Shown here: positions 29,148 through 47,494 of the stretch, piece after piece
How the letters are laid out: each line of letters opens with the position of its first letter
Numbering within the stretch: the stretch's first letter is position 1
Origin: Synechococcus sp. CC9311
GTDB taxonomy: Bacteria; Cyanobacteriota; Cyanobacteriia; PCC-6307; Cyanobiaceae
Direction of reading: 5' to 3'
Length of the DNA: 64,000 nt
Assembly (NCBI RefSeq): GCF_000014585.1
Contig: NC_008319.1
Location: forward strand, 1,674,001-1,738,000
Program-made: the position numbers and the translations under genes
Notes under the pieces: model-generated
Told to the model about the DNA's origin: nothing
The model's database searches: none
The model's input: the letters and a program-made list of their open reading frames with translations, nothing else

Positions 29148-31865
29148 ATGTCCAGTTCCGCCAACGCGCTCTCGACCCAAAAGCGGGAAGAACCGCCTCA
29201 TGAGATCCATCGCTGCAAAGAGCGTGAGTCTGGGAAGGTCGCATGGAATTTATGGGGGACCTACCTCAGCGACCGTCAATGGGGCACCGTTCGGGAGGAT
29301 TATTCCGCTGACGGCAATGCATGGGAGTCATTTCCCTTCGATCAGAGCCACCTACGCACCTACCGCTGGGGAGAGGATGGCTTACTGGGATTGAGCGACG
29401 TTGAGGGATTGGTCTGCTTCGCGCCTGCACTTTGGAACGGTCAGGATCCAATTCTCAAGGAACGATTGTTCGGTCTCGGGAATCCCGAAGGCAATCACGG
29501 TGAAGACATCAAGGACACGATGTATCACTTGGCAGGAACACCAACCTGCAGTTACGCAAAAGCCCTTTATCGCTACCCACAAGCAGCATTTCCCTATCAA
29601 CATCTTCGTGATGAAAACAGGCGTCGCTCCCGCGACGAAAAAGAATATGAGCTGGTCGATACAGGAATCTTTTCAGACAATCGCTTTTTCGACATGGAAG
29701 TCGAATATGCAAAAGCTGATGCCGAAGACATCTTCATTCGACTCACCATCACAAATCAAAGTGATGAATCATCCGAATTACATCTCTTACCTAGCCTTTG
29801 GTACCGCAACACCTGGTCCTGGGGAGATCGTGAGGCCAGTCGGCCAAGCCTGCATCTCCAAGGAAACAGTTTGATATCGGAGGCCATCGATGGCCTTGAT
29901 GCTTACGAACTGAACTGCAGTGAAAAGGGCACGTGGCTTTTCACAGAAAATGAAACCAATACTCAGGCTCTCTGGGGCAAAACCCTGACTCAGCCATACG
30001 TCAAAGATGCCTTCAACCGCTATCTAATCAACGGGGAAAAGAACGCCGTCAATCCAGCTCAGTGTGGCAGCAAAGCTGCTCTTCACCTCCATCACACTCT
30101 CGCCGCAGGAGAGTCTTGGGTTGTGCATTTACGACTATGTCGACGAAGCCACCAAGCAACTAACCAAACGCTCCCAATCTCTGCCGCAGAGAGCACACGT
30201 TTGGTTGAGATGCGATACCTGGAATGGAAGCATCACCAGCAATGGATTGCTCCAGGCCTCAACGACGAAGACCGTGCCATCCACTCCGCTGCAGGAGCAG
30301 GGTTGTTCTGGTGCAGAAAGTTTTACAACTGGAATGTCAGTCGCTGGCTAAGAGGAGACAACAACTCAACTCGACCCCCAAAACAACGCTGGCACACAGA
30401 AAACGCTTACTGGAAAACATTGCGCGCTAAAAATATTATTTCCATGCCAGATTGCTGGGAATACCCCTATTTCTGCCAATGGGATTTAATGTTTCATGCC
30501 GTAGCTTTTGCAGAGTTTGATGCTGCTGAAGCGAAGCAACAATGTCGAATGCTCAGACAGGCCTATTACACAGCAACAAATGGTCAATCCCCGGCCTACG
30601 AATGGGCACTTTCTGATGCCAATCCACCCATTGGTGCATGGGCAGCCCTACGAATCTTTCAGATCAGCCGCCGCCACACAGGAGAAGGAGACTATGCCTT
30701 CTTAAGGGCAAGCCTCCGAGAGTTGTTGCTCGAATATGGCTGGTGGACAAACAGAACCGATCGCAACGGAGACAACCTATTTGAGGGGGGGTTCCTAGGC
30801 CTCGACAATATTGCCATCTTCGATCGACGCTATCCTCTTAAAGACGGAAGTCGCATCGAACAATCAGACGGTACGGCCTGGATGGGGCTACTTAGCCTTA
30901 ACTTGCTAAAAACAACGGTGATTCTTGCAGAAGAAGATCGCGAGGAATATATCGAACTATGCTCACGTTTTGTTCGCGATTTTACTCGTCTAACTTATTC
31001 CCTAAATAGTTCTGTTGGCCGAGGATTTGTCAATTGGGATGATGAAGATGGTTTTTATTATGACGTTCTCAAGCGCCCTGATGGCTCTACTGATTATCTG
31101 CGTACTAGATCGATTAGTGGTCTGATCCCACTTTTAGCTGTCAATAGCTTTGCCGCCAGCAGCGTAAAAGCAATTCCTTCTCTAGATGTTGGTCTACAAC
31201 TCGCCCAGCTCGAAGAAGAACGGGGAGCACCTTTCGATGCAATCAGCCACCTTGGTTCCTGGAATCACGATCGCATTTTATTCTCCATCGTTCCACCTGA
31301 AAGGCTTAGGCGCATTCTTAAACGCGTTTTCGACGAAGAAGAATTCCTTTCCCCTTATGGAATCAGAAGCCTATCCAAAGCCTATGAAAACAACCCATAT
31401 TCATATCAACAGGGCGATGACTATGCTTCGATTAGCTACAGCCCCGCAGACAGTCCCGTAGCAATGTTCGGTGGAAATTCGAATTGGCGTGGTCCAGTGT
31501 GGATGCCAATTAATTTTCTATTAATTGAGGCTCTTCAAAAATTTGGGCACTTTTTTGGCGATGATTTCACAATGGAGTTCCCAACAGGTTCTGGACAAGA
31601 AATGAACCTCTGGGAAATTTCTCTTGAGCTAGAGAAGCGTCTTATTGGAATATTCAGACGGGATGAAAACCAACACAGAGCATTCAATGGTGATGTTGAA
31701 CTCTTCCAAAATGACCCCCTCTGGCGCGATTTATTCCTATTCAATGAATACTTTCATGGCTGCAATGGATCAGGGATTGGAGCAAGTCACCAAACAGGCT
31801 GGACCGCAATCGTCGCGAAAATGATAACGCAACTTCAGCGTTGGCAACCCAACAAGGAAAGCTGA
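29148..31865 (+). CDS. GH63-like glucosidase (MGH1-type glycoside hydrolase)
   Basis: 905 residues from ATG 29148 (a GTG precedes it). The N-terminal beta-sandwich carries LSDRQWGTVREDYSADGNAWE and ERLFGLGNPEGNHGEDIKD, and the C-terminal (alpha/alpha)6 barrel carries EYPYFCQWDLMFHAVAF, FEGGFLGLDNI and GNSNWRGPVWMPINF. This arrangement is that of bacterial GH63-like inverting alpha-glucosidases. There is no signal peptide, so it is probably cytoplasmic. Substrate could be a glucosylated compatible solute or an oligosaccharide. A GMC oxidoreductase follows 51 bp on. Confidence 0.82.
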   Translation: MSSSANALSTQKREEPPHEIHRCKERESGKVAWNLWGTYLSDRQWGTVREDYSADGNAWESFPFDQSHLRTYRWGEDGLLGLSDVEGLVCFAPALWNGQDPILKERLFGLGNPEGNHGEDIKDTMYHLAGTPTCSYAKALYRYPQAAFPYQHLRDENRRRSRDEKEYELVDTGIFSDNRFFDMEVEYAKADAEDIFIRLTITNQSDESSELHLLPSLWYRNTWSWGDREASRPSLHLQGNSLISEAIDGLDAYELNCSEKGTWLFTENETNTQALWGKTLTQPYVKDAFNRYLINGEKNAVNPAQCGSKAALHLHHTLAAGESWVVHLRLCRRSHQATNQTLPISAAESTRLVEMRYLEWKHHQQWIAPGLNDEDRAIHSAAGAGLFWCRKFYNWNVSRWLRGDNNSTRPPKQRWHTENAYWKTLRAKNIISMPDCWEYPYFCQWDLMFHAVAFAEFDAAEAKQQCRMLRQAYYTATNGQSPAYEWALSDANPPIGAWAALRIFQISRRHTGEGDYAFLRASLRELLLEYGWWTNRTDRNGDNLFEGGFLGLDNIAIFDRRYPLKDGSRIEQSDGTAWMGLLSLNLLKTTVILAEEDREEYIELCSRFVRDFTRLTYSLNSSVGRGFVNWDDEDGFYYDVLKRPDGSTDYLRTRSISGLIPLLAVNSFAASSVKAIPSLDVGLQLAQLEEERGAPFDAISHLGSWNHDRILFSIVPPERLRRILKRVFDEEEFLSPYGIRSLSKAYENNPYSYQQGDDYASISYSPADSPVAMFGGNSNWRGPVWMPINFLLIEALQKFGHFFGDDFTMEFPTGSGQEMNLWEISLELEKRLIGIFRRDENQHRAFNGDVELFQNDPLWRDLFLFNEYFHGCNGSGIGASHQTGWTAIVAKMITQLQRWQPNKES

Positions 31866-31916
31866 CGCAACGCACCAATCTGACTACCTTGAAAATGATT
31901 TTCCCAGATCAAGATC

Positions 31917-33518
31917 ATGGTTTGCTCCACCCGATCGACTGCGCGCTGTACGTCGATCGAACCTCAAGGAGAAGACTTTGACGTTGTGATCATCGGAAGT
32001 GGTGCTGGGGGTGGAACTCTGGCCAGGGCACTTGCCGATTCAGGCCATTCGATTCTGATCCTCGAACGAGGCGGATGGCTGCCAAGAGAACCTCAAAATT
32101 GGGATCCGGTTGAAGTGTTCCAAAACGATCGTTATGTCTCCAAGGATCTTTGGGAAGACAAAGAGGGAACATCCTTCCAACCAGGAAGCCATTACTTCGT
32201 AGGTGGTGCTTCAAAAATGTATGGAGCTGCTCACTTCAGGCTGCGTGAGCGTGACTTTGAATCGGTGATGCATGTGGATGGAGAGTCACCGGAATGGCCA
32301 ATCAAATATGACGTTTTTGAACCCTATTACCGCAAAGCAGAAGAGTGGTATCACGTGCATGGACTGAGGGGCGAAGACCCGTTTGAACCCCCTACATCAT
32401 CTCCTTACCCCTACGCACCGATTAGTCATGAACCACGAATGCAAAAGCTGGTCGATGACCTTCGATCTGCAGGACTAAGACCTTTTCATCAGCCCACAGG
32501 TGTTGCTCTCAACGAAACATCGCCAGCATTTAGTGACTGCGTGCGCTGTAACCGCTGCGATGGTTTTCCCTGTTTGGTGCATGCCAAAGGGGATGCTGAA
32601 GTCATGGGAGTGAGGCCAGCACTCGTTCATGACAACGTTTTTCTCCTAACCAATGCTGAGGTTGTTCGGCTCAACACCAACTCCACGGGACGTGAGGTTA
32701 GTGAAATAGTTGTGAATCACGAAGGCAAAGAACGGCGTTTCAAGGGAAGCATCGTTGTGGTCTCTGCAGGTGCCGCGAATTCTGCTCGTCTGCTTTTAAT
32801 GTCGGCTAATGAGGCGCACCCCCACGGATTAGCCAACAGCTCGGATCAGGTAGGAAGGAACTATATGTATCACAACTGCAAAGCAGTTGTGGCCTTAGCG
32901 CATGAGCCAAATCACACGGTGTTTCAAAAAACGGTAGCCATCAATGACTGGTACTTCGGAGACAACGATTTTGATTTTCCAATGGGTCATGTGCAAATGA
33001 CGGGCAAAACCAATGGGGCCATGATGAAAGGATATAAACCACGACTTACGGCCTTAGCCCCAACTTGGAGCATGGACAAACTCGCAGAGCATTCCCTGGA
33101 TTTTTGGATGCAAACAGAGGATCTACCTCGGTCATCCAATCGCGTCACAGTTAATCGTGAAGGGAAAATCCACCTGAACTACACCTCAACTAATAATCAA
33201 GCATCTCAGGAGTTAATCTCAAGGCTAGAAGGATTACTAGACAAGCTGTACCTAAATAATCACTTAGCAGAAAGGCAGGTGTACTTTGCATCAGCCATGG
33301 AGCTTGCTGCAGTAGGCCATCAATGCGGCACCTGTCGTTTTGGTCAAGACCCAAAGACCTCTGTTCTAGATCTGAATTGCCGCACTCATGATGTCGACAA
33401 CCTTTACGTTGTTGATACCAGCTTCTTTCCCAGCAGCGCAGCGGTGAATCCATCTCTCACCGCTATCGCCAATGCAATCCGCATCAGCGATCACCTGCGT
33501 GAGCGACTCAACGGTTAA
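31917..33518 (+). CDS. GMC-family flavin oxidoreductase with Cys cluster
   Basis: 533 residues. The FAD motif VVIIGSGAGGGTLARAL is near 23-39, the GMC block HYFVGGASKMYGAAH near 92-106, and the C-terminal VDTSFFPSSAAVNPSLT motif closes the FAD site. Between them sits C208-x2-C211-x2-C214-x4-C219 followed by AKGD, a cysteine group seen in a subset of bacterial GMC dehydrogenases; whether it binds a cluster is not known. The substrate may be a sugar or polyol. It follows the GH63-like gene by 51 bp and is convergent with the DoxX gene (4 bases shared). Confidence 0.85.
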   Translation: MVCSTRSTARCTSIEPQGEDFDVVIIGSGAGGGTLARALADSGHSILILERGGWLPREPQNWDPVEVFQNDRYVSKDLWEDKEGTSFQPGSHYFVGGASKMYGAAHFRLRERDFESVMHVDGESPEWPIKYDVFEPYYRKAEEWYHVHGLRGEDPFEPPTSSPYPYAPISHEPRMQKLVDDLRSAGLRPFHQPTGVALNETSPAFSDCVRCNRCDGFPCLVHAKGDAEVMGVRPALVHDNVFLLTNAEVVRLNTNSTGREVSEIVVNHEGKERRFKGSIVVVSAGAANSARLLLMSANEAHPHGLANSSDQVGRNYMYHNCKAVVALAHEPNHTVFQKTVAINDWYFGDNDFDFPMGHVQMTGKTNGAMMKGYKPRLTALAPTWSMDKLAEHSLDFWMQTEDLPRSSNRVTVNREGKIHLNYTSTNNQASQELISRLEGLLDKLYLNNHLAERQVYFASAMELAAVGHQCGTCRFGQDPKTSVLDLNCRTHDVDNLYVVDTSFFPSSAAVNPSLTAIANAIRISDHLRERLNG

Positions 33519-34006
33519 GCCAGAAACTGTTGCAAACGTGGAGCAACCCAAAGAAGATCAACACTGATTGGCCCTCCACCTGAAGTGATCAAAACTGAAC
33601 ACATCACCACATACATCGCGGCTTTTTCCCAACTGGGAGGCTCTCCAACTCCCATAGGGCCTGCGTAATCTCCCTGCGGGATTTGAAAGGGATCGGGTGC
33701 GATAAAGGGAAATCCATTGAGAAGCTCCAAGACAACGGCATAAAGCATCGACACAGCAATGGCCATCGCCGCTAATGGCGTGAGGAACCCAATCACTAAA
33801 GCAATGCCTCCGGCCCACATCGAAAAGGCCGAAAGAAAACAGAGCCAAGCGGGAGTTTTCATTGCATCAGCCCAAAGGCCAAGGTTGCTTAATTTCGTCC
33901 AGCCATGACGAATGAAAACCAAACCGGTAAAAAGGCGCAGCAAGATCAAACCACTGGATGCAAACCCCAAAGAGGAATCAGGAACCAAAAGAGAAACAAC
34001 GTCCAT
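33515..34006 (-). CDS. DoxX-family membrane protein
   Basis: 163 residues from ATG 34006; a TTG at 34027 adds seven residues. Four hydrophobic helices (about 16-36, 54-75, 78-98, 126-148) with LRLFTGLVFIRHGWTKLSN near the start match DoxX, a family that includes subunits of thiosulfate:quinone oxidoreductase and many uncharacterised proteins. Its last four bases overlap the GMC gene, and it lies 49 bp after the VOC gene on the same strand. Confidence 0.78.
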   Translation of the reverse strand: MDVVSLLVPDSSLGFASSGLILLRLFTGLVFIRHGWTKLSNLGLWADAMKTPAWLCFLSAFSMWAGGIALVIGFLTPLAAMAIAVSMLYAVVLELLNGFPFIAPDPFQIPQGDYAGPMGVGEPPSWEKAAMYVVMCSVLITSGGGPISVDLLWVAPRLQQFLA

Positions 34007-34055
34007 GAGTTTCACCACGATGCACAAACATTAGAAACAGTTGTCGTTGTAGTCA

Positions 34056-34886
34056 TCAAGGATGAAGCCATAGGCGATGACCATCAGGATCCACCAACAA
34101 TTGACCTGTCGCCAAGGTGGCGTCCTTTACCAGAATCTGAGCATAAAGAGCATCATGAGGCTGCAAATCAATGGAGGACGGTCCTATCGGTTCAGGCTGC
34201 ACGTAACGAAGAAACTCAACTCCACAACCAGACCTTCCTCCAACTCCATGAATCACAACCTCAGCGGAGTCCAAATCATCTAGCCGTTGCTGCTCCACAC
34301 CCTGGTTATAAGAGGCGTATCGCAACTCCAATCCCATCTCGCAAATATAGAAACGCAGGCTCCGATCCGAATCAGCAACTGCGATTGCACTGTGATCAAG
34401 CCCCTGAAATAAAGACTCGCCTGATTGATGCCAACGGGGATCGCCCATCCCCTCTGGGAAAAACAATAGTTCCATCGCATGGCCGCAAGCATTTCGGAAT
34501 TTCCAAGCTCCAACCCCATTCGGCAGATATTGAGGTGCAGCAGAAATGGGGGTCACAAAAGGCGCCAATTTCTCAACAGCCCTCAGCAAATCCCGCACCA
34601 CTATCGCGACATGTTGAAACCACAGCGTGTTCGACGGTCCTGGATCCACCTTGTGGCGTGGCGGTGCATCAGGGAAGTGAATGATTTCTATGCGCTCATG
34701 GCCCAACAAAAAAGGAGTGATCTCTGCCCGACCGGCGCTCGGTCCAAAACGCTGCGCAGCGGCCTCTTTCTCGAGACATTGCCGAGGTTGCGCTACAGCT
34801 CCGAGAGCATCGAGAAGGGGTGCTAGCGCTTCAGATTGAGGGGCTGAAAACGCCACACCCTCGATACGTCCAGATTGTGAAACCAT
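34056..34886 (-). CDS. Two-domain VOC (glyoxalase/dioxygenase-like) protein
   Basis: 276 residues. Two vicinal-oxygen-chelate halves are visible: the first (about 5-140) with LWFQHVAIVVRDLLRAVEKL and AMELLFFPEG, the second (about 160-275) with LDHSAIAVADSDRSLRFY, VEFLRYVQ and a final DPDGHRLWL. Conserved His and Glu at metal-site positions (QHVA, MELL, DHSA, VEFL) suggest a metal enzyme, perhaps a dioxygenase or lyase. The reaction is not known. It is divergent from the SDR gene. Confidence 0.72.
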   Translation of the reverse strand: MVSQSGRIEGVAFSAPQSEALAPLLDALGAVAQPRQCLEKEAAAQRFGPSAGRAEITPFLLGHERIEIIHFPDAPPRHKVDPGPSNTLWFQHVAIVVRDLLRAVEKLAPFVTPISAAPQYLPNGVGAWKFRNACGHAMELLFFPEGMGDPRWHQSGESLFQGLDHSAIAVADSDRSLRFYICEMGLELRYASYNQGVEQQRLDDLDSAEVVIHGVGGRSGCGVEFLRYVQPEPIGPSSIDLQPHDALYAQILVKDATLATGQLLVDPDGHRLWLHP

Positions 34887-34989
34887 CTATTTTCCTGGAA
34901 ACCTTTGTCTGTTGATAGCAACAAGGCTTACCGATTAACTGCCAGGACTGACAAAAGCGGCTAATTGAAGAGGAGATCTCAAAAGAGCC

Positions 34990-35787
34990 ATGACTCAGGT
35001 TCCCCACGCTTTAGCTTCCCTCTGTCTTCAGAACAAAGTCATTGTTGTCACTGGCGGAAATTCCGGCATTGGTAAAGCAATTGTTGAAGTGGTGGGAAGC
35101 CTGGGCGCCAAAGTTGTGATCGACTACCGCTCTCATCCTGAGCGGACTGAGGAATTGATCGAAGAAGTGGGCGAACTCGGTGGTCAATCGATTGGTGTTC
35201 AGGCTGATGTCAGCAAGCTCGTGGATCTACAACACTTAATCGATACCGCTGTACAAACATTCGGAAAGATTGATGTGATGGTAAACAATGCTGGTATCGA
35301 AACGCGTACATCGATTCTGGACACCTCTCCAGACGACTTTGACAAAGTCATGAATGTCAATTTACGCGGTGTTTTCTTCGCTACTCAATACGCAGCCAAA
35401 CAGATGATTAGCCAAGGAAGTGGTGGCCGAATCATCAACATCTCTTCAGTCCATGAAGATTGGCCTATGCCGAATAACACCCCATACTGCGTAGCCAAAG
35501 GCGGCGTTCGCATGCTCACACGCACGGCTGGAGTGGAACTCGCAGGCAAAGGCGTCTCCATCGTGAATGTAGGCCCCGGAGCAGTTGCAACGCCTATTAA
35601 TGACTCCACCATGAACGATCCAGAATTATTAGCCAAATTGAATGCAGCCATCCCGATTGGGCGTATGGCACAGCCAGCGGAAATCGCTTCAGTTGTTGCC
35701 TTTTTAGCCGGGAATGGAGCCAGCTACATGACAGCCACTAGCGTGTTCGCTGACGGCGGCATCATGATGAGCAGCCCTGGGCTCTGA
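34990..35787 (+). CDS. SDR-family glucose 1-dehydrogenase-like protein
   Basis: 265 residues. The classical SDR signs are all present: TGGNSGIG (21-28), NNAG (99-102), Ser152/Ser153, Tyr166 and Lys170 (Y-x3-K), and a C-terminal FADGGIMM. The HEDWPMPNNTPYCVAK stretch is characteristic of bacterial glucose 1-dehydrogenases. It would oxidise glucose (or a related sugar) to the lactone with NAD(P). A strong ribosome site GAGGAGA is at 34970-34976. Convergent SMP-30 lactonase lies 262 bp on. Confidence 0.85.
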   Translation: MTQVPHALASLCLQNKVIVVTGGNSGIGKAIVEVVGSLGAKVVIDYRSHPERTEELIEEVGELGGQSIGVQADVSKLVDLQHLIDTAVQTFGKIDVMVNNAGIETRTSILDTSPDDFDKVMNVNLRGVFFATQYAAKQMISQGSGGRIINISSVHEDWPMPNNTPYCVAKGGVRMLTRTAGVELAGKGVSIVNVGPGAVATPINDSTMNDPELLAKLNAAIPIGRMAQPAEIASVVAFLAGNGASYMTATSVFADGGIMMSSPGL

Positions 35788-35830
35788 TCTCGAAACCTTC
35801 GCAGTTCATCATTTGCATCGGATCAGGTCC

Positions 35831-35865
35831 ACTGAATGGACATCTTCCAAAGATGTCCATTCAGT
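35831..35865. terminator. Bidirectional hairpin between SDR and lactonase genes
   Basis: A perfect 16-pair inverted repeat, ACTGAATGGACATCTT (35831-35846) and AAGATGTCCATTCAGT (35850-35865), with a three-base loop. It lies 44 bases after the SDR stop, between convergent genes. There is no T run on either strand, so it may block transcription or protect 3' ends rather than act as a classic intrinsic terminator. Confidence 0.6.
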
Positions 35866-36049
35866 TCCATGCCGGCAGCAAGGGGCTCGAGGGGATCCGA
35901 CGAAAGCGTCAAAGTGGCTGATGCCTGATGCACCAGGATGACTACAGAACTGAACTAAAACCCCATCGTCTCCCCTATGCAGCAACTTGTTGAGTAATAC
36001 CTCCAGCTGAGAATTGCTGTTCATGGGATCGAAAGTTGCCCTTGATTCA

Positions 36050-36997
36050 TTAGGACAGAGCAGGGTGCTGCAGCCCCCTCGTGTTGACATAGATGGAATA
36101 CATGGTGTCCCAGCTGCACAAAAACAGCCGATTTCCATTCACACCACCGAAGCACAGGTTGCCGACCAGACGTGGTGTAGCAATCCGGCCCAGCAAAGTG
36201 CCATCTGGAGCAATGCAATGGACCCCGTTACCAGCACTGCTCCAGACATTGCCGATAGCGTCCACTCGAATTCCATCGGCATTGCCATTGTTAACTCGGT
36301 GGAAATCCCGGCGGCCGGAGAGCTTCGAACCGCCTTCCTCAACGTCGAACAGGTGAATCAGGTGATCCGGGGTCGAATCATCCGGGGCACATGTATCGAC
36401 GACATAAAGCATCGACTCATCAGGTGAAAAGGCAAGCCCATTTGGCCCTTTCACCTCGTCTGGAGAAGTCATGGCCTGGAGTGAGCGATCCGCCGGATCA
36501 AAGCGATAAATCACTGCTGGCTGAAATGAGTGCCGACGCCCTCCTTCGAAATCATTGACCAGCCCATAGAGAGGATCACTGAACCAGACAGTGCCATCAC
36601 TCTTGACCACAACATCATTGGGAGTGTTTAAAGGCTGGCCCTGATGAGAGTCCACTAACGAAACAACCTGACCGTTGTGTTCTGTTCGCAGCAAAGCACG
36701 ATGACCATGGCTGCAAGTCAGTAACCGTCCCTGACGATCCCTTGTTTGCCCATTAGGAAAGCCAGCGGAATGTCGAAAAATACGGAGACCATCGCTTTCA
36801 TCCCAAGACAAAATGCGATCGTTTGGGATGTCAGACACCAGTAGCCGCTGCTGATCACCGAACCACACCGGCCCCTCCAGCCACCGGCAACCGTCGAACA
36901 GTTTCTCCAACTGTGCGTTGAACAACACCAATGAGTGAAATCGAGGATCGACCACTTCGACACTGGTATCAACAAACTCACTGCGATACACGCTCAT
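36050..36997 (-). CDS. SMP-30/gluconolactonase-like protein
   Basis: 315 residues from ATG 36997 (the open frame reaches 37042 but overlaps the cupin gene). Beta-propeller signs: EGPVWFGDQQRLLVSDIPNDRI, PNGQTRDRQGRLLTC, NTPNDVVVKSDGTVWFSDPLYG and VKGPNGLAFSPDE, with NADGIRVDAIGNVW near the end. Glu, Asn and Asp at the metal positions of the family (LEGP, TPNDV, VVDT) are kept. Such enzymes open sugar lactones. Its place opposite a glucose-dehydrogenase-like SDR fits conversion of gluconolactone to gluconate. Confidence 0.85.
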   Translation of the reverse strand: MSVYRSEFVDTSVEVVDPRFHSLVLFNAQLEKLFDGCRWLEGPVWFGDQQRLLVSDIPNDRILSWDESDGLRIFRHSAGFPNGQTRDRQGRLLTCSHGHRALLRTEHNGQVVSLVDSHQGQPLNTPNDVVVKSDGTVWFSDPLYGLVNDFEGGRRHSFQPAVIYRFDPADRSLQAMTSPDEVKGPNGLAFSPDESMLYVVDTCAPDDSTPDHLIHLFDVEEGGSKLSGRRDFHRVNNGNADGIRVDAIGNVWSSAGNGVHCIAPDGTLLGRIATPRLVGNLCFGGVNGNRLFLCSWDTMYSIYVNTRGLQHPALS

Positions 36998-37008
36998 TGT
37001 TTGTCCTT

Positions 37009-37464
37009 TCAGCTGAATGATCCTGGAGGAAGATTTCTCCAAGCTTGATCATTGCGCTGGATAATCAGTTGCACGCAGGGTTCATCACCAACCTGCGCAG
37101 AAAGATGTCCAGTGCGTCCATCTGGCGTAATGATGCAACCCTGATCCCCGCCGTATGAATATTCGCCGGCTTTCATCAATGCAATCTGCCCGTCCATACT
37201 TGTCACAGACCAGGCGCCACGCAACACATAAATCCATTTCGGCTCAGGATTCTCATGCCAAGGACCCACCCAGCCGACCGGCAGATAAGTGACAAACGCA
37301 TTGCCATCCTTCATCAGACCTCTTGAAAATTGAGGTGAATTGCGCTCTCCCAGGCGACCAAGAGTGAACTGACTAATCTTGCAACTCTCTTGCCGGCTAA
37401 TTCCATCGGCATCCGTCCAGAGATGCCAATAGTTTTCAGCAGCAGGTGCCTGAGGGGCGCTCAT
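37009..37464 (-). CDS. Cupin-domain protein
   Basis: 151 residues. A single cupin barrel with motif 1 residues around GWVGPWHENPEPKWIYVLRGAWSV (His in PWHEN, Glu in PEPKW) and a second motif around GDQGCIITPDGRTGHLS. A metal site is likely. Role unknown. It is 31 bp downstream of pyrC and 11 bp upstream of the SMP-30 gene, so all three are probably co-transcribed. Confidence 0.75.
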   Translation of the reverse strand: MSAPQAPAAENYWHLWTDADGISRQESCKISQFTLGRLGERNSPQFSRGLMKDGNAFVTYLPVGWVGPWHENPEPKWIYVLRGAWSVTSMDGQIALMKAGEYSYGGDQGCIITPDGRTGHLSAQVGDEPCVQLIIQRNDQAWRNLPPGSFS

Positions 37465-37495
37465 GATCTCGCACGATCTCCTGGCAGAACCTTAT

Positions 37496-38608
37496 TCAGT
37501 TTGCGCCGGAGTGCCCATTCATTTCCACACACCAGGCGAGTGTTTCCCCGGCATGAAAAAGCAAAGGCCACTCAGACTCAGGCAAGGTGTCATCCCCAGA
37601 CCGTGCTGAGTGGGGTGGCAACAATCGAGAGGGTATGGGCTGATCCCTCCGAACCAACGTAACGGTGTCGGTATTCAGGGACAGACCGTAAAAGTGCGGA
37701 CCGTACTCACTGGCAAAGCCCTCAAGGCGATCCAGTGCTCCTTCCTGTTCAAAGACGGTGGCATAACTCTCCAGCGCATGGAACGCATTGAAGATGCCTG
37801 CACATCCGCACGCTGATTCCTTACCTGAGCGGGGGTGTGGTGCCGAGTCCGTACCTAAGAAGAAACAAGGAAGACCACTGGTGGCAGCCTGAACCAAAGC
37901 CCTTCGGTGGCATTCTCGTTTCACAACAGGAAGACAGTAGAAGTCACTGCGCAGACCACCGACAAACATCGCATTTCGATTGAGGTGAAGATGATGCGGT
38001 GTGATCGTGGCGGCGATGCGTTCATCACCGCCCTGATAAGAGTCACGGATATAGGTCACAGCTTCCTCAGTGGTGATGTGCTCGAGGATGATGCGCAGCC
38101 TGGGATGACGCTCACGCAAAGGCTTCAAGTGCCGCTGAATGAACAGGGCTTCCCGATCAAACACATCCACATCGGGGTCGGTGACCTCGCCATGTATCAG
38201 CAGGGGCATATCAATAGCCTCCATACGCTCCAGCACCGCTGAAATGTTCTGGAGATCGCTCACACCAGCTGCTGAATTAGTGGTGGCGTTAGCGGGGTAA
38301 AGCTTGGCTGCACTGAACACTCCCTGATGGAATCCCCGGTCCAATTCCCAAGGATCGATAGCGTCGGTGAGATAAGCAGTCATCAGAGGTTGAAAGCTGA
38401 CTCCCTCGGGAAGAGCCGCAAGAATCCTGGCGCGATAAGCGACTGCCTCCTCCACCGACGTCACAGGTGGACGCAAATTGGGCATCACGATGGCCCGGGC
38501 AAAGGTTCTGGCAGTGGCAGGAAGCACAGCCTTCAACATGGCGCCATCCCTCAGATGCACATGCCAGTCATCCGGACGACGCAAGACCAGACGATCTGAG
38601 GAGGTCAT
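37496..38608 (-). CDS. pyrC: Dihydroorotase (class II, PyrC)
   Basis: 370 residues. It closes N-carbamoyl-aspartate to dihydroorotate in pyrimidine synthesis. RRPDDWHVHLRDG gives the first zinc histidines, AAKLYPANATTNSAAGV the carboxylated lysine (K), LIHGE and LEHITT the further His ligands, and GTDSAPH the catalytic Asp. It begins directly after the stop of the bicA gene (TAGATG), so both share a message. No other pyr gene is in view. Confidence 0.96.
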   Translation of the reverse strand: MTSSDRLVLRRPDDWHVHLRDGAMLKAVLPATARTFARAIVMPNLRPPVTSVEEAVAYRARILAALPEGVSFQPLMTAYLTDAIDPWELDRGFHQGVFSAAKLYPANATTNSAAGVSDLQNISAVLERMEAIDMPLLIHGEVTDPDVDVFDREALFIQRHLKPLRERHPRLRIILEHITTEEAVTYIRDSYQGGDERIAATITPHHLHLNRNAMFVGGLRSDFYCLPVVKRECHRRALVQAATSGLPCFFLGTDSAPHPRSGKESACGCAGIFNAFHALESYATVFEQEGALDRLEGFASEYGPHFYGLSLNTDTVTLVRRDQPIPSRLLPPHSARSGDDTLPESEWPLLFHAGETLAWCVEMNGHSGAN

Positions 38609-41568: not shown

Positions 41569-42075
41569 ATGCAGATGATTGGGCTGCTCCCCCCGCTCAA
41601 CGACAAAAATCTCCCCTGGCTGGATGTCATTCATCCAATCGTGGTGCATTTCGTGATTGCGATGGCGCTGATCACTGTGGTATTTGACCTAATTGGAGTG
41701 ATCACTCGCCGCCGCAATCTGTTTGAGGTGAGCTTCTGGAACTTAGTGGTAGCGACCGTTGCAATCTTCGTCGCCATCATCTTTGGCCAAATTGAAGCAG
41801 GCTTAGCCACTCCTTACGGAGCTTCAAGAGACATTTTGAATTATCACAGCACCCTTGGCTGGTCTCTCGCTGCAATTCTCAGCCTGCTCACGGGCTGGCG
41901 ATACGTTGCAAGACAAAAAGACCCAACAGTTCTGCCTAGAGGGTTTCTGATCATTGATTCCGTTCTTGCCGTTCTGGTGTTCTGCCAGGTTTACCTAGGC
42001 GACAAACTCGTTTGGGTTTATGGCCTCCATACGGTCCCGGTTGTCGAAGCCGTCCGTAGTGGAGCCCTGTCATGA
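41569..42075 (+). CDS. DUF2231 membrane protein, first of two
   Basis: 168 residues with four hydrophobic helices (about 23-45, 55-76, 92-112, 128-150). LDVIHPIVVHFVIAMALITVVFDLIG is the DUF2231 entry, with two His in the first helix that could bind haem. The last His is in GLHTVPV. Its stop overlaps the start of the second DUF2231 gene by four bases (ATGA). It opens the alternative-oxidase operon. Confidence 0.82.
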   Translation: MQMIGLLPPLNDKNLPWLDVIHPIVVHFVIAMALITVVFDLIGVITRRRNLFEVSFWNLVVATVAIFVAIIFGQIEAGLATPYGASRDILNYHSTLGWSLAAILSLLTGWRYVARQKDPTVLPRGFLIIDSVLAVLVFCQVYLGDKLVWVYGLHTVPVVEAVRSGALS

Positions 42076-42692
42076 ATTTCATCAGCACCATTCTCTCCCC
42101 GGTGAATGAAATTGCCGACAAACTGGGTGCGAATGATCTCCCCTACTCGATCCCGATTCATCCCAATTTGGTGCACTTCACCATTGGCCTATTTGCTATC
42201 GGAATCGCCTTTGATTTTGCAGGAGCGTTTTATCCACTAGAAAAACGTTTGTTTCGCTTCCTGGCACTACCTGTGACACGAAGCGGTTTTCACGATGTCG
42301 GCTGGTACAACGTGCTTGCTTGCAGCGTGATCACTTTTTTCACCGTAGCAGCTGGCTTTTACGAAATGATCTTGGCTGTTCCACTGCCAGGGATTCGCAG
42401 CATCATTGGCCAAAATGCAATCGACACCATGCTTTGGCATGCGATCGGTGGGGTCGCATTACTACTGATCATTGTGGTGATGACCATCTGGCGAGGGTTT
42501 CAGCGATTTTTTTGGCGTAAAGATTACGGCCGTCAGGTGAGCTGGCTCTATCTCGGATGCGGAGCTTCAGTGCTCCTGCTGATGGGCCTTCATGGAAGCC
42601 TTGGTGCCTGGCTTGCGAGTGAATTTGGCGTTCACATCACAGCGGATCAACTCCTGGCTGCCGGAGCCGACCTTAATGAGGTCCTGCCATGA
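42072..42692 (+). CDS. DUF2231 membrane protein, second of two
   Basis: 206 residues with four hydrophobic helices (about 30-54, 77-100, 118-142, 155-178). IPIHPNLVHFTIGLFAIGIAFDFAGA resembles the first helix of the preceding gene; His in HPNLVHF and LWHAIGG are candidates for haem ligands. The ends overlap on both sides by four bases (ATGA), so the four membrane genes are surely translated from one message. A role as an extra subunit of the oxidase is likely but not shown. Confidence 0.83.
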   Translation: MNFISTILSPVNEIADKLGANDLPYSIPIHPNLVHFTIGLFAIGIAFDFAGAFYPLEKRLFRFLALPVTRSGFHDVGWYNVLACSVITFFTVAAGFYEMILAVPLPGIRSIIGQNAIDTMLWHAIGGVALLLIIVVMTIWRGFQRFFWRKDYGRQVSWLYLGCGASVLLLMGLHGSLGAWLASEFGVHITADQLLAAGADLNEVLP

Positions 42693-43624
42693 CCACAACG
42701 ACTCCCAAGAAGGGACCAAACATCAGAGCGATTGTGATCATCACAGTGGCCATCGCGATCAATCTGGTCATCGCCAAACTGATGGCGACCTGGTCTCTTA
42801 ATTGGTTTCCACCCCAAGCCTCCAGTGCCGCTCCTTACGTCGACAATCTTTTTGCACTCGAAACGGGGATCGGCTCATTCATCTTTTTTGGTTGTACCGG
42901 TTTCATTGGCTGGGTGCTGCTATTTAACCGAGCTGGAAAGTACGACGAAAGTGATGGGGCGCCAATCGAGGGCAATACCAAATTAGAAATCACCTGGACG
43001 ATCATTCCCCTGGTGACGGTCTTCCTGATCGCGACCTATTCAATGAACGTCAATATGAAGCTTCAAACCCTTGGGCCGAAGCACAAATACGCCGTAGGAA
43101 CTGACCCGACCGTACTGATGGAGGCAGACCCAATTGCTGATGTAGGACCGATCGATGTCATTGCCCGTCAGTGGAGCTGGGAGTTTGTTTACCCCGATGG
43201 AGTTCGCAGCTCGGAGTTGCATCTACCGATTGATCAGCGCGTGAATTTCCGGATGATCTCTGAGGACGTACTCCATAGTTTCTTTGTGCCGGCCTTCCGT
43301 CTCAAGCAAGACATCATCCCCGGAAGCATCATTTCGTACAGCCTGACTCCCACAAAGGAAGGGCGATTCAGGCTTCGGGACGCCATGTTTAGCGGCGCCT
43401 ACTTCTCCCAGAACCAGACAGACGTCATTGTTGAAACCAAACAGGCTTACGCCGAATGGTTAAAGACAACGGCAGGACAACCGCTGCAAGAGGGTCTTGA
43501 CCCAAGTCGCACCCTCTATGACCGCCGCATCGCCCGCGGTGACAAAGGCTGGGCCACGGTGCCTCCCTCTCCAGCACCGATGGTGAACGACCCCGGTGAT
43601 CCTTCTATCCCTCACGACGCCTGA
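42689..43624 (+). CDS. ctaC: Haem-copper oxidase subunit II without CuA site
   Basis: 311 residues. Two N-terminal helices (about 13-35 and 62-80), then a periplasmic cupredoxin domain with QWSWEFVYPDGV (161-172) and VLHSFFVPAFRLKQDIIPG (194-212). In CuA-containing subunits the later stretch carries two Cys, Glu, His and Met; here it reads FRLRDAMFSGAYFSQNQTD (227-245) and has none of the cysteines. Only His196 remains. As with the cyanobacterial ARTO, this should be a quinol oxidase. It overlaps the preceding gene by four bases. Confidence 0.92.
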   Translation: MTTTTPKKGPNIRAIVIITVAIAINLVIAKLMATWSLNWFPPQASSAAPYVDNLFALETGIGSFIFFGCTGFIGWVLLFNRAGKYDESDGAPIEGNTKLEITWTIIPLVTVFLIATYSMNVNMKLQTLGPKHKYAVGTDPTVLMEADPIADVGPIDVIARQWSWEFVYPDGVRSSELHLPIDQRVNFRMISEDVLHSFFVPAFRLKQDIIPGSIISYSLTPTKEGRFRLRDAMFSGAYFSQNQTDVIVETKQAYAEWLKTTAGQPLQEGLDPSRTLYDRRIARGDKGWATVPPSPAPMVNDPGDPSIPHDA

Positions 43625-43632
43625 GACGTGCC

Positions 43633-45327
43633 ATGACCATGCAAAGCAAAACATACGACCTACGCATTCTCAAGGCACCTCATCCAGTTCCTGGAGCACC
43701 GGACAACTGGAAACGCTTCTTCAGTTTCAACACCGACGCCAAAGTGATTGGAATCCAATACATCGCTACAGCGATGTTGTTCCTACTAGTAGGCGGACTT
43801 TTAGCGATGATCGTACGAGGCGAACTGATCACGCCTCCGGCCGATCTTGTCGATCCAAGTGTTTATAACGGCCTTTACACCATGCACGGAACAGTGATGC
43901 TGTTCCTATTTTTATTCCCAATTCTCAACGGCTTCAACAACCTGTTGATCCCAACGATGATCGGGGCACCAGATATGGCATTTCCAAAACTTAATGCCGC
44001 TGCTTTCTGGCTTGTGCCTGTGTTCTCCATTGTCTTAATGGGAAGCTTTTTCGCCCCCGGCGGTCCCGCATCATCGGGATGGTGGTCGTATCCGCCAATG
44101 AGTCTGCAAAATCCGCTCGGCCATTTCATCAATGGAGAGTTTCTATGGATTCTTGCGGTGGCACTTTCCGGTATCTCCTCGATCATGGGAGCAATCAACT
44201 TCGTGACGACCATCATCCGGATGAGGGCCCCAGGGATGGGTTTCTTCAGAATGCCAGTTTTTGTTTGGACAGCATGGGCTGCCCAGACCATCCAGCTGAT
44301 AGGACTGCCCGCTCTCACTGGTGGTGCGGTGATGCTTCTGTTTGACCTGAGCTTCGGCACCAGCTTTTTTCGACCAGAGGGTGGTGGCGATCCAGTGTTA
44401 TTTCAGCACTTTTTTTGGTTCTATTCCCACCCAGCCGTATATGTGCTGGTTTTACCTGTGTTCGGTATTTTTTCTGAGCTCTTTCCGGTATATGCACGCA
44501 AACCACTATTTGGCTATCGCTTTGTAGCAATTGCCTCATTCGGAATCACTTTTCTCAGCCTAATTGTGTGGGCCCACCATATGTTTTACACGGGCACACC
44601 AAACTGGATGCGTCATATCTTCATGTTCACTACGATGCTCATTGCCATACCCACTGGAGTGAAAGTTTTCGCCTGGCTGGGAACACTTTGGGCAGGCAAT
44701 TTAAGGTTAAATACACCGATGTTGTTCTGCATCGGCGGACTTATCAATTTTATTTTTGCGGGAATCACTGGAGTCATGCTGGCCACAGTGCCAATCGATA
44801 TTCACGTCGGCAACACCTACTTCGTCGTAGCCCACTTCCACTATGTGATCTTCAACACGATTGTGTTCGGTGTTTTCGCCGGCATTTATCACTGGTTCCC
44901 AAAGTTCACAGGGAAGATGTACTACGAAGGCCTTGGAAAAGTCCATTTCGTGCTCACCTTCATCGGCGCCACGCTCAATTGGCTACCACTCCACTGGGCT
45001 GGATTGCTGGGCATGCCCAGGCGCGTTGCCTCCTACGACCCAGAATTCGCCATCTGGAATGTCATTGCCAGCATCGGCGCTTTCATGCTTGGCGTTGCCT
45101 CAATCCCCTTCATCCTCAACATTGTGAGCTCATGGGCTCGCGGGCCCAAGGCTCCACCCAACCCCTGGCGAGCGATTGGCCTGGAGTGGCTGTTGCCATC
45201 TCCACCACCTGCCGAAAACTTTGAAGACGACATTCCAACGGTGATTAGTGAGCCTTACGGCTATGGATTGAACAAACCCTTGGTTGAAGACCAGGACTAT
45301 TACATCCGTCGCTCTATGGAGGCTTGA
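43633..45327 (+). CDS. ctaD: Haem-copper oxidase subunit I
   Basis: 564 residues, twelve helices. Ligands: His85 (YTMHGTV) and His403 for the low-spin haem, His266 with the cross-linked Tyr270 in SHPAVYV, His315-His316 for CuB and His401 in AHFHYV for the high-spin haem. It reduces O2 to water and pumps protons. It follows ctaC by 8 bp. No second subunit I set is visible here, so a separate aa3-type operon must lie elsewhere if present. Confidence 0.97.
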   Translation: MTMQSKTYDLRILKAPHPVPGAPDNWKRFFSFNTDAKVIGIQYIATAMLFLLVGGLLAMIVRGELITPPADLVDPSVYNGLYTMHGTVMLFLFLFPILNGFNNLLIPTMIGAPDMAFPKLNAAAFWLVPVFSIVLMGSFFAPGGPASSGWWSYPPMSLQNPLGHFINGEFLWILAVALSGISSIMGAINFVTTIIRMRAPGMGFFRMPVFVWTAWAAQTIQLIGLPALTGGAVMLLFDLSFGTSFFRPEGGGDPVLFQHFFWFYSHPAVYVLVLPVFGIFSELFPVYARKPLFGYRFVAIASFGITFLSLIVWAHHMFYTGTPNWMRHIFMFTTMLIAIPTGVKVFAWLGTLWAGNLRLNTPMLFCIGGLINFIFAGITGVMLATVPIDIHVGNTYFVVAHFHYVIFNTIVFGVFAGIYHWFPKFTGKMYYEGLGKVHFVLTFIGATLNWLPLHWAGLLGMPRRVASYDPEFAIWNVIASIGAFMLGVASIPFILNIVSSWARGPKAPPNPWRAIGLEWLLPSPPPAENFEDDIPTVISEPYGYGLNKPLVEDQDYYIRRSMEA

Positions 45328-45331
45328 GACA

Positions 45332-45937
45332 ATGACCACAACCAATCAAGACTTACCCCTCAATCATCAACCCGGCCACATCAAACATGATGGGCACAAC
45401 ATCACAGGTTTTATCATTTTCCTGTGTTCAGAAAGCATCATTTTTCTAGCCTTTTTTACTGGCTTTGCAGTTCTGAAAATCACCGCTCCAGAGTGGCTCC
45501 CTGAAGGCGTTGAAGGGTTGGAGACACGGATGCCTCTGATCAACACGGTCATCTTGGTTAGCTCAAGCTTTGTGGCCTACTTCGCAGAGCGATATTTACA
45601 TCAAAAAAACCTTTGGGGCTTTCGAGCTTTGTGGCTTCTCACGATGGCGATGGGAACCTACTTCGTTTATGGACAATATGTGGAATGGTCCGAACTTCAG
45701 TTCAGCCTTAGCAGTGGAGTCTTTGGAGGTACATTTTTTCTACTCACAGGATTTCATGGCCTGCATGTAATCACAGGCATTCTGTTGATGGGATTGATGC
45801 TACTTCGATCTTTCAGACCAAATAATTACGAGAAAGGTGATATGGGCGTCACCTCAGTCAGCCTTTTTTGGCATTTCGTTGATGTTATTTGGATCATTCT
45901 TTACCTCTTAATTTACGTCTGGCAACGCACAACCTGA
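45332..45937 (+). CDS. ctaE: Haem-copper oxidase subunit III
   Basis: 201 residues from ATG 45332, with a GGAGG at 45318-45322; an upstream in-frame ATG at 45284 lies in ctaD and is not used. About five helices, typical of short cyanobacterial CtaE, with LTGFHGLHVITGI and LFWHFVDVIWIILYLLIYVW marking the core subunit III sequences. The start lies 4 bp after the ctaD stop. A GMC gene follows 39 bp on with no clear terminator between. Confidence 0.93.
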   Translation: MTTTNQDLPLNHQPGHIKHDGHNITGFIIFLCSESIIFLAFFTGFAVLKITAPEWLPEGVEGLETRMPLINTVILVSSSFVAYFAERYLHQKNLWGFRALWLLTMAMGTYFVYGQYVEWSELQFSLSSGVFGGTFFLLTGFHGLHVITGILLMGLMLLRSFRPNNYEKGDMGVTSVSLFWHFVDVIWIILYLLIYVWQRTT

Positions 45938-45976
45938 ACCATCTGATTTTTTAGATCGGCCTTCATTCTTTCCATC

Positions 45977-47494
45977 ATGATCATCGACGACCGCCATTAC
46001 GACGTAATCATCATCGGCAGTGGTGCCGGTGGTGGAACTCTTGCTGGTGCCCTGAGCCGTAAAGGTCACTCCGTGCTCATGCTCGAGCGAGGAGAGGCCA
46101 TGGCTCTCGAAGATCAAAATGTGGCCGATGTGGATCTGTTTCGTAAAGATCGTTATCACCCCAGGAATGAACGCTGGTTTGGGCCCGACGGTGATCCGTT
46201 TGCACCACAAACCACCTATTCGCTCGGCGGCAACACCAAAATCTGGGGCGCAGTCCTGGAACGCATGCGCGAAAAGGATTTTGGTGACGTCCCGTTGCAA
46301 GAAGGGATTTCACCGTCTTGGCCCATGAACTACGACCAGTTAGCTCCTTATTACTCAGCAGCAGAAACGCTGTACCGCGTCCATGGTCGAGCTGGAATCG
46401 ACCCAACCGAACCAGCCCGTTCTGCACCTTTTGAGTATGAGCCAAAACCATTGGTTCCCTTTCTTGAGCCTCTGCGAGAAGCTCTCAAACGCCAGGGATG
46501 TCAGCCCTATGACCTACCGCTGAGCTGGTCCACGAGCCAGGACGATCCGAGTGGAGATTCCCAGCTGTATGGCATCGATCATGCCAATCGTTCCAAGTTA
46601 GAAATCCGAACGCAAGCCACCGTGAAGCGGTTGCACGTGAATCCACTCGGCAGCTCCGTCAAAGGTGTTGAAGCTGACGTAGCAGGAGAAACATGGCTGT
46701 TCAAAGCGGATCTCATCGTGCTGGCCGCAGGAGCCATCAACTCTCCGGCAATCCTGCTGCGATCGCATTCAAGCCATCACCCCCGCGGACTCAACAACGG
46801 ATCCGATCAGGTTGGTCGCAACCTGATGAATCTCCAACTCACCTCCATCCTGCAGCTCGCGACTGAACGCAACGACGGACGTTATTCGCGTTCACTCGGA
46901 ATCAATGACTACTACTGGGGAGACAAAAATGTCTCTTTCCCGCTCGGCCACATTCAGGCCGCGGGAGGCGTCTTGCAAGACGCCCTGTTTGCGGAGTCAC
47001 CGCCGGTGCTGTCCCTTGTCAGCAAAATGATTCCTGATTTTGGGCTGGAGCGACTGGCGTCCCGCTCGGTGGCTTGGTGGGCCATGTCTGAAGTCTTACC
47101 CGACACCCATAACAAGGTCTGGCTGAACAACGATCAGATCCGCATCAACTACATCCACAACAACCGCGAAGCCCATGATCGATTGGTCTACCGCTGGATT
47201 GACACCCTCAAAGCGATCGAAGCCGATCCACTCACTCGGGTCGTGAGTACAGCTCCGACCCACCCCCGGGGCGAAGCGCCCATAAGCGTTGTGGGCTACG
47301 CATGCGGAACCTGTTGCATGGGCATCGATCCAGCGGCTTCGGTGGTCGACGCGACAGGTAAATGTCATGAACTGGACAACCTTTACATTGCCGACACGAG
47401 CGTCTTTCCAAGTTGTCCCAGTGTTGGGCCGGGTCTGACCACCATCGCCTTAGCCCTGCGGCTAGCTGACACGCTCAGCCAGTGCATGAGCTAA
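45977..47494 (+). CDS. GMC-family flavin oxidoreductase, second copy
   Basis: 505 residues. FAD motif VIIIGSGAGGGTLAGAL (about 9-25), YSLGGNTKIWGAVLE (about 83-97), LAAGAINSPAIL, then the C-terminal CGTCCMGIDPAASVV and VFPSCPSVGPGLTTIA motifs. It is a sequence relative of the GMC protein at 31.9 kb but lacks that protein's central C-x2-C-x2-C cluster. Because it directly follows the quinol oxidase operon, it may pass electrons from its substrate to the quinone pool. The substrate is unknown. Confidence 0.86.
   Translation: MIIDDRHYDVIIIGSGAGGGTLAGALSRKGHSVLMLERGEAMALEDQNVADVDLFRKDRYHPRNERWFGPDGDPFAPQTTYSLGGNTKIWGAVLERMREKDFGDVPLQEGISPSWPMNYDQLAPYYSAAETLYRVHGRAGIDPTEPARSAPFEYEPKPLVPFLEPLREALKRQGCQPYDLPLSWSTSQDDPSGDSQLYGIDHANRSKLEIRTQATVKRLHVNPLGSSVKGVEADVAGETWLFKADLIVLAAGAINSPAILLRSHSSHHPRGLNNGSDQVGRNLMNLQLTSILQLATERNDGRYSRSLGINDYYWGDKNVSFPLGHIQAAGGVLQDALFAESPPVLSLVSKMIPDFGLERLASRSVAWWAMSEVLPDTHNKVWLNNDQIRINYIHNNREAHDRLVYRWIDTLKAIEADPLTRVVSTAPTHPRGEAPISVVGYACGTCCMGIDPAASVVDATGKCHELDNLYIADTSVFPSCPSVGPGLTTIALALRLADTLSQCMS

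What the first reader, a model, noticed from the sequence alone, without database searches (positions are those of the whole stretch)
29148..47494. Candidate glucose-oxidation and alternative-respiration module
Within 18 kb stand a GH63-like glucosidase, a glucose-1-dehydrogenase-like SDR, an SMP-30 lactonase, two GMC flavoproteins, a cupin and VOC protein, plus a quinol-type terminal oxidase whose operon ends at the second GMC gene. Sugar release, oxidation to lactone, ring opening and electron disposal can be read as one chain. Family assignments come from motifs seen here; the linkage is inference, since pyrC, bicA and a cation antiporter are interspersed.
Basis: partly seen in the sequence, partly recalled or inferred. 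Interest (0 to 1): 0.62.

Follow-up and report, generated by a model that had tools for sequence, protein, structure and literature searches.

The report
Sugar-oxidation genes beside a quinol oxidase
Many cyanobacteria keep a set of sugar-oxidising genes together, and in Synechococcus-like picocyanobacteria it often sits next to a backup respiratory oxidase whose operon usually ends in a flavin protein that resembles a sugar dehydrogenase but lacks the usual catalytic residues.

Summary
There are two modules.

[quoted passage not shown] The six-gene order holds in 40 of 40 family regions; GMC2 follows ARTO in 97 of 118 loci class-wide. GMC2 and other ARTO-adjacent GMC proteins lack the catalytic Asn in 79 of 79 and 79 of 80 named loci; His is usually lost too. 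GMC2 is probably a flavin partner of the oxidase, not a sugar dehydrogenase.

Module B (29145-37464) is GH63, GMC1, VOC, SDR, SMP-30, cupin. GMC1 keeps His-Asn (39 of 39) and best matches an FAD-glucose dehydrogenase. GH63 and GMC1 orthologues share 33 of 33 genomes of 131, all with GMC2. GMC1-GH63 neighbours without ARTO also carry the SDR (18 of 20).

pyrC, bicA and the antiporter look like bystanders. Substrates and the electron route are untested. My literature searches (open-licence PMC, no supplements) found no report of a GMC gene in the ARTO operon.

The parts
29145..31865 (+). GH63-family glycoside hydrolase, alpha-glucosidase-I-like (module B)
   Evidence: Pfam; Foldseek to 4j5t/8e3j E 5.6e-16 with a model of mean pLDDT 72.5; orthologues beside GMC1
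31917..33518 (+). GMC1, FAD sugar-dehydrogenase-like protein with His468, Asn511 and Cys208/211/214/219 (module B)
   Evidence: Pfam; PDB 6a2u FAD-glucose dehydrogenase 1.8e-40; residues
34056..34886 (-). VOC/glyoxalase-superfamily protein (module B, often present)
   Evidence: Pfam Glyoxalase 2.3e-6; near GMC1 in 14 of 22 family regions
34990..35787 (+). SDR, glucose-1-dehydrogenase-like (module B)
   Evidence: PDB 1rwb 3.5e-63; NCBIfam NF006493 253.7 bits, below its cut-off of 420; neighbourhoods
36050..37042 (-). SMP-30/gluconolactonase-like protein (module B, optional)
   Evidence: Pfam SGL 6.6e-45; 5 of 22 family regions at 50% identity or more
37009..37464 (-). small cupin overlapping the SMP-30 gene (module B, optional)
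   Evidence: Pfam Cupin_2 1.9e-6; 5 of 22 family regions, the same five as SMP-30
41569..42075 (+). DUF2231 membrane protein a (module A)
   Evidence: Pfam 1.6e-37; order conserved
42072..42692 (+). DUF2231 membrane protein b (module A); His30, 35, 123, 188 invariant in both paralogues
   Evidence: Pfam 6.7e-39; alignment of 38 rows
42689..43624 (+). oxidase subunit II without CuA cysteines (ctaC2-like)
   Evidence: Pfam COX2, COX2_TM; 0 of 41 rows with Cys in the CuA stretch
43633..45327 (+). oxidase subunit I (ctaD2-like)
   Evidence: Pfam COX1 1.6e-153; distinct from a second subunit I gene at 51% identity elsewhere in the genome
45284..45937 (+). oxidase subunit III (ctaE2-like)
   Evidence: Pfam COX3 4.7e-35
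45977..47494 (+). GMC2, GMC-fold flavoprotein with Tyr441 and Gly484 in place of the catalytic His and Asn
   Evidence: Pfam; alignment to 6a2u; census; last gene of the ARTO operon

Best explanation
Two redox modules, separately evolved and joined in picocyanobacteria. Module B frees a sugar, probably glucose, from an alpha-glucoside in the cytosol (GH63) and oxidises it by the FAD enzyme GMC1, which keeps the catalytic His-Asn pair and a four-Cys segment that may hold an iron-sulphur site and would pass electrons to quinone, and by the SDR with NAD(P); SMP-30, where present, would open the lactone. Module A is ARTO, a quinol-type oxidase that drains the quinone pool. GMC2, its sixth gene product, is related to GMC1 but has lost the alcohol-oxidising pair while keeping the FAD motif and conserved residues of its own; it most likely works as a flavin redox or assembly partner of ARTO, not as a sugar dehydrogenase. 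Shown by sequence: gene content, order, co-occurrence, residue changes. Inferred: substrates, quinone as the link, the iron-sulphur site, the role of GMC2.
For: Order DUF2231-DUF2231-II-I-III-GMC2 in 40 of 40 family regions; GMC2 same strand 609-1846 bp after subunit I in 97 of 118 ARTO loci; ARTO in 54 and GMC2 in 55 of 131 family genomes, 54 shared. Catalytic Asn in 0 of 79 GMC2-class or ARTO-adjacent GMC proteins against 39 of 39 other GMC1-class proteins with His-Asn. FAD motif GxGxxG kept in 72 of 72 GMC2-class rows. GMC2-specific Gln78 73/73, His400 73/73, Tyr405 72/73, shared by 5 of 5 ARTO-adjacent intermediates. GH63 and GMC1 in the same 33 genomes. GMC1 closest to FAD-glucose and fructose dehydrogenases. 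Prochlorococcus HNLC1, HNLC2 and MIT 9107 keep GMC2 behind ARTO.
Against: 13 of 113 ARTO genomes have no GMC2 in the list used, 12 of them in one family, so ARTO can exist without it. One of 80 named loci has Asn and two have His; His is kept in 13 of 72. B. cepacia-type gamma subunit (PF13618) not found in the genome. No TIGR01313 gluconokinase. 22 of 55 family genomes with GMC2 lack module B, and outside the family the GMC1-GH63 regions fetched had no ARTO, so neither needs the other. Three GMC2-class genes lay without ARTO in the fetched DNA (L081, L094, L110).
Confidence: 0.5

Rival explanations
1. One chain: both GMC proteins oxidise sugar and feed ARTO directly.
For: Adjacency of all genes in the window and in other family genomes; His remains in 13 of 72 GMC2-class proteins.
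Against: Asn is absent from 79 of 79 and 79 of 80, and GMC2 occurs in 22 of 55 family genomes without GH63 and GMC1 and behind ARTO in streamlined Prochlorococcus regions where GH63 was not seen.
Confidence: 0.12
2. GMC2 is an enzyme with a different chemistry: the pocket was rebuilt (conserved His400 and Tyr405) for another substrate, as other GMC members have changed chemistry (fatty acid photodecarboxylase and hydroxynitrile lyase; precedent recalled).
For: GMC2-specific invariant residues; weak matches to photodecarboxylase entries, 3e-4, among many GMC entries.
Against: No candidate substrate; operon context points to the oxidase.
Confidence: 0.2
3. Modules A and B are neighbours for historical reasons only, and module B serves osmolyte or storage-glucoside turnover independent of respiration.
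For: Module B stands without ARTO in 20 of 20 GMC1-GH63 regions fetched outside the family and lies apart from ARTO in four family genomes (G037, G077, G108, G051). In the window it lies 4 kb from the operon.
Against: 33 of 33 family genomes with module B also have ARTO-GMC2 (not corrected for kinship), and the joined order recurs in many genera of the family.
Confidence: 0.18

Closest known systems
Alternative respiratory terminal oxidase (ARTO, ctaC2-D2-E2)
   Same: Subunits II, I, III, no CuA cysteines; PMC10119275 (passages seen) reports it in 85% of Synechococcus reference genomes and in low-iron Prochlorococcus.
   Different: The operon here also holds two DUF2231 genes and GMC2, which those passages do not mention.
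Burkholderia cepacia FAD-glucose dehydrogenase and Gluconobacter fructose dehydrogenase catalytic subunits (PDB 6a2u, 7w2j)
   Same: GMC1 is closest to them (1.8e-40, 3.7e-30), has His and Asn at the aligned places and several Cys in the same segment.
   Different: No PF13618 small subunit in the genome; no cytochrome subunit among the neighbours; Cys spacing differs.
GH63 alpha-glucosidases (eukaryotic glucosidase I, E. coli YgjK)
   Same: Pfam GH63 and MGH1-like hits; fold match over the whole chain.
   Different: About 12% identity in the structure match, so substrate cannot be carried over.
Bacillus glucose 1-dehydrogenase (SDR)
   Same: Best solved relative, 3.5e-63; best NCBIfam hit is a glucose-1-dehydrogenase subfamily.
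   Different: 253.7 bits against a cut-off of 420.
Mycofactocin dehydrogenase MftG
   Same: Best NCBIfam hit of both GMC proteins; recalled as a GMC protein linked to respiration.
   Different: 71 and 83 bits against a cut-off of 387.

Membership tests
ARTO (module A) | Adjacent genes for oxidase subunits II, I, III distinct from the main cytochrome c oxidase | tested here: met
   (second subunit I gene at 51% identity elsewhere)
ARTO (module A) | Subunit II without CuA ligands (quinol type) | tested here: met
   0 of 41 rows with Cys in the CuA stretch
ARTO (module A) | Oxidises quinol | not testable with these tools
   needs enzyme assay
Catalytically competent GMC oxidoreductase (GMC2) | Catalytic His and Asn (or His) near the flavin | tested here: not met
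   Tyr441 and Gly484 in the window; Asn in 0 of 79 and 1 of 80
Catalytically competent GMC oxidoreductase (GMC2) | FAD-binding GxGxxG and GMC domains | tested here: met
B. cepacia-type FAD-glucose dehydrogenase complex (GMC1) | Catalytic subunit with His-Asn | tested here: met
B. cepacia-type FAD-glucose dehydrogenase complex (GMC1) | Small gamma subunit (PF13618) | tested here: not met
   0 matches in the genome; control rings in 2 of 14 genomes
B. cepacia-type FAD-glucose dehydrogenase complex (GMC1) | Iron-sulphur cluster from a Cys segment | tested here: inconclusive
   four Cys conserved in 34 of 36 GMC1-class rows; spacing differs from 6a2u; metal not testable
GH63 glycoside hydrolase | GH63 catalytic domain | tested here: met
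   Pfam over cut-off; Foldseek
GH63 glycoside hydrolase | Acts on an alpha-glucoside | not testable with these tools
   needs assay
Glucose 1-dehydrogenase (SDR) | NCBIfam subfamily cut-off NF006493 | tested here: not met
   253.7 of 420 bits, so filed only as glucose-dehydrogenase-like SDR
Mycofactocin MftG | NCBIfam equivalog cut-off TIGR03970 | tested here: not met
   71.3 and 83 of 387 bits
Heme b membrane protein (DUF2231) | Fold of cytochrome b561 or similar with His ligands | tested here: inconclusive
   four invariant His in 38 rows; no Foldseek match with E under 1; VIA-align Z 12-13.7 to COX3 bundles and 10.7 to 4o6y (rmsd 4.0 over 145), within the range of common helical bundles

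The most novel reading that the evidence does not exclude
GMC2 and the DUF2231 pair are overlooked parts of ARTO: the DUF2231 proteins bind heme b through their four invariant histidines and anchor GMC2, a sugar dehydrogenase turned electron carrier, so that ARTO is a flavin-heme-quinol complex able to send electrons to oxygen or to Fe(III). That would tie the reported iron-reduction phenotype of ARTO mutants to the retention of GMC2 in iron-limited Prochlorococcus.
Probability: 0.18. Interest if true: 0.82.

Novelty: new variant of a known kind. Interest (0 to 1): 0.58.

Why it matters
ARTO has been linked to electron disposal and to Fe(III) reduction in iron-poor oceans (PMC10119275, passages), and what feeds it and what it consists of is open as far as I know. 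A sixth gene that nearly always follows it, encodes a flavin protein without the usual catalytic residues, and is kept in streamlined Prochlorococcus gives a direct handle on that question. The linked GH63-GMC1-SDR set suggests a route by which photosynthetic cells oxidise unphosphorylated sugar.

Tried and rejected
Considered and rejected: (1) pyrC, bicA and the antiporter as members: they flank ARTO in near relatives with the block (L034) and without it (L035, L036) and are not seen beside it in most other family regions. (2) ORFs 33905-34684+ and 35809-36138- as genes: no Pfam match and they overlap the VOC and SMP-30 genes. (3) A tRNA-targeted integrative element: no exact repeat of 12-29 bases of the tRNA 3' end was found up to base 40000, and no integrase search was made, so the block is described only as present or absent. 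(4) DUF2231 as a heme protein by fold: inconclusive. (5) PMC10100731 on glucose responses (passages found by terms only): nothing on GMC, terminal oxidase or glucosidase; its table lists glucose 1-dehydrogenase without a significant change. (6) A first regular expression for the FAD motif matched only 42 of 72 GMC2-class rows because it was too narrow; a wider one matched 71, and the last row has GSGPAG.

Limits: searches were computed from tables that I copied by hand into scripts. In one search the ARTO rows are those of 65% identity or more (plus one fragment of 71%); subunit I rows of 55-64% were left out, among them some without GMC2. The GMC2 rows there are full-length matches of 45% or more plus three fragments. 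The GH63 list was cut, so 33 of 84 is a lower bound. In one search GH63 and GMC1 orthologues were taken at about 55-64% identity or more, two GMC1 and some GH63 rows being fragments at contig ends; GH63 homologues of 40-51% (three further genomes) were not counted. In one search two divergent GMC1-class rows (L104, one of L103) were dropped. Of 55 family genomes with GMC2, regions were fetched for 40 others than the window and two more later. The GMC2 frame in L118 is broken. DUF2231 genes were not found in the fetched stretches of HNLC1 and HNLC2, where a run of 100 N lies just before subunit II. Synechocystis PCC 6803 and Anabaena PCC 7120 were not checked by name.

Literature: searches covered open-licence PMC only; supplements could not be read. 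Passages were seen of PMC10119275, PMC10100731 and PMC4734447 (it names an unspecified GMC oxidoreductase as marine-specific among Synechococcus, without oxidase context). Of other papers only listings and starts of abstracts were seen.
Full report
1. What is there. The window lies at 1674001-1738000 of a single-contig genome of 2,606,748 bases; I recall that size for Synechococcus sp. CC9311, but the name was not tested. The nearest named loci are marine Synechococcus. All genes in the finding exist and the family calls hold. Subunit II has no Cys in the CuA stretch in 41 of 41 rows, which fits the quinol-type label.

2. Module A, ARTO plus GMC2. In 40 of 40 family regions fetched around GMC2 the six genes have the same order and strand. 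These regions were chosen for having GMC2, so the fair test is the reverse one: in 131 family genomes GMC2 is in 55 and the ARTO-type subunit I in 54, and all 54 have GMC2; the odd one, G105, has a truncated GMC2 on a short contig. In 242 genomes of the class, 118 ARTO loci in 113 genomes were counted; 97 loci in 96 genomes have GMC2 on the same strand 609-1846 bp after subunit I. Of 104 GMC2 loci 97 are adjacent by that table, and two more (G136, G210) are adjacent in the fetched DNA. Against: of the 113 genomes 13 have no GMC2 in the list, 12 of them in one family, and four have GMC2 elsewhere; eight fetched regions of that family (L120-L124, L130-L132) show ARTO without GMC. Among the best 80 named loci, 76 have subunits I and III upstream, and in the other four GMC2 lies near a contig end. 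They include Prochlorococcus HNLC1, HNLC2 and MIT 9107; DUF2231 was not found in the HNLC1 and HNLC2 stretches, where a run of N precedes subunit II.

3. GMC2 is not an ordinary GMC dehydrogenase. Aligned to B. cepacia FAD-glucose dehydrogenase, GMC1 has His and Asn at the catalytic places and GMC2 has Tyr and Gly; that these are the catalytic places is recalled family knowledge. Among 108 GMC proteins, GMC1-class rows have His-Asn in 35 of 36 and four Cys in 34 of 36; GMC2-class rows have Asn in 0 of 72, His in 13 of 72, and no Cys segment. The one GMC1-class exception, L101, lies behind ARTO. Four more such proteins (L114, L115, L116, L119) lie behind ARTO, keep the four Cys, and have Asn-Ser in place of His-Asn. 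These five share GMC2-specific residues such as Gln78, His400 and Tyr405. So 79 GMC2-class or ARTO-adjacent proteins lack the Asn in 79 of 79 (three of them, L081, L094 and L110, without ARTO in the fetched DNA), and the 39 other GMC1-class proteins have His-Asn in 39 of 39. Among the 80 named loci one has Asn (with Phe at the His place) and two have His. The FAD motif GxGxxG is present in 72 of 72 GMC2-class rows. A quick tree separates the classes, with L101 at the split on the GMC1 side. The simplest reading is that a GMC1-like dehydrogenase was taken into the ARTO operon, lost the catalytic pair, and later lost the Cys segment; the order of events is inference.

4. Module B. The family genomes with the GH63 orthologue (33) and with GMC1 (33) are the same 33 of 131, and all have GMC2. 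The hypergeometric figure ignores kinship and is not relied on. On a tree of 41 GMC2 rows GH63 presence changes at least 7 times, and in 5 of 5 well-supported independent pairs GMC1 changes with it (p 0.0625, too few to be significant). In the 22 family regions with GMC1, GH63 lies next to it in 22, and SDR and VOC are in the region in 14 each (in L068, L069 and L071 on the far side of ARTO); in 17 regions without GMC1 neither was found; SMP-30 at 50% or more and cupin are in the same 5 of 22. In four family regions where GH63 and GMC1 lie apart from ARTO, VOC and SDR are with them in 4 of 4 (L126-L129). Outside the family 33 of 84 GMC1-type loci (29 of 64 genomes) have a GH63 homologue within 6 kb (lower bound). 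Of 20 such regions fetched, 18 also carry an SDR of 43-48% identity on the same strand and 6 a VOC, and none showed ARTO. As a contrast, in the 42 ARTO regions from outside the family no SDR of 40% identity or more was found.

5. The window's own arrangement. In the window and in L034 the block lies beside tRNA-Leu (28995-29080), about 4 kb before the oxidase operon, while in the other 21 GMC1 regions it follows GMC2. Same-genus L035 and L036 lack about 29098-37649. G+C of the block is 0.501 against 0.525 for the window. Gain, loss and relocation cannot be told apart from this.

6. Mechanism. Shown: content, order, co-occurrence, residues. Inferred from family knowledge: GH63 hydrolyses an alpha-glucoside (model of mean pLDDT 72.5); GMC1 and SDR oxidise the sugar, GMC1 with quinone as acceptor; ARTO oxidises quinol. 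A simple scan found no twin-arginine motif and no membrane segment in GH63, GMC1, SDR, SMP-30, cupin, VOC or GMC2, so the chemistry is placed in the cytosol. The fate of gluconate is open: no TIGR01313 kinase (other kinase families not searched). GMC2 is proposed as a flavin partner of ARTO. The DUF2231 pair has four histidines invariant in 38 rows of both paralogues, which would suit heme, but the fold comparison is inconclusive.

7. Known and new. ARTO in Synechococcus and low-iron Prochlorococcus, and its suggested role in Fe(III) reduction from a Synechocystis mutant, are in PMC10119275 (passages seen). Those passages do not mention GMC or DUF2231. Searches for GMC with ARTO, with terminal oxidases or with Synechococcus and for DUF2231 turned up no description of this arrangement; PMC4734447 names a marine-specific GMC oxidoreductase without oxidase context (passage). 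GH63 with glucose dehydrogenase in cyanobacteria gave no paper. Only open-licence papers without supplements were covered, so the claim of novelty is moderate.

8. Verdict.

Noticed in passing
window 28995-37649: An 8.5-kb block beside tRNA-Leu carries module B and is absent at the same place in two same-genus genomes (L035, L036).
   Followed up: partly
window 41569-42692: Two DUF2231 membrane proteins open the ARTO operon; four histidines are invariant across both paralogues, and the literature search for DUF2231 gave one unrelated database paper.
   Followed up: partly
L133 (G000:C1:1068000-1087900): A third, divergent GMC gene lies elsewhere in the same genome, about 24% identical to GMC1, with His-Ser at the catalytic places.
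   Followed up: no
L040, L042, L044, L166, L170, L173: A second GH63 homologue of about 48-50% identity (L040, L042, L044) follows GMC1, giving GMC2-GH63-GMC1-GH63.
   Followed up: no
L120-L124, L130-L132: One cyanobacterial family keeps ARTO with the DUF2231 pair but no GMC gene beside it, a natural test of what GMC2 adds.
   Followed up: partly
L174, L214: GMC2 relatives on records titled Hyphomonadaceae (MAG) and Microcystis elabens; the 73% and 64% identities to the window suggest mis-binning or misnaming of picocyanobacterial DNA.
   Followed up: no
window 47517-48887: A glutathione-reductase-like gene lies convergent to GMC2, 22 bp away, and stays beside it in near relatives such as L035-L039.
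   Followed up: no
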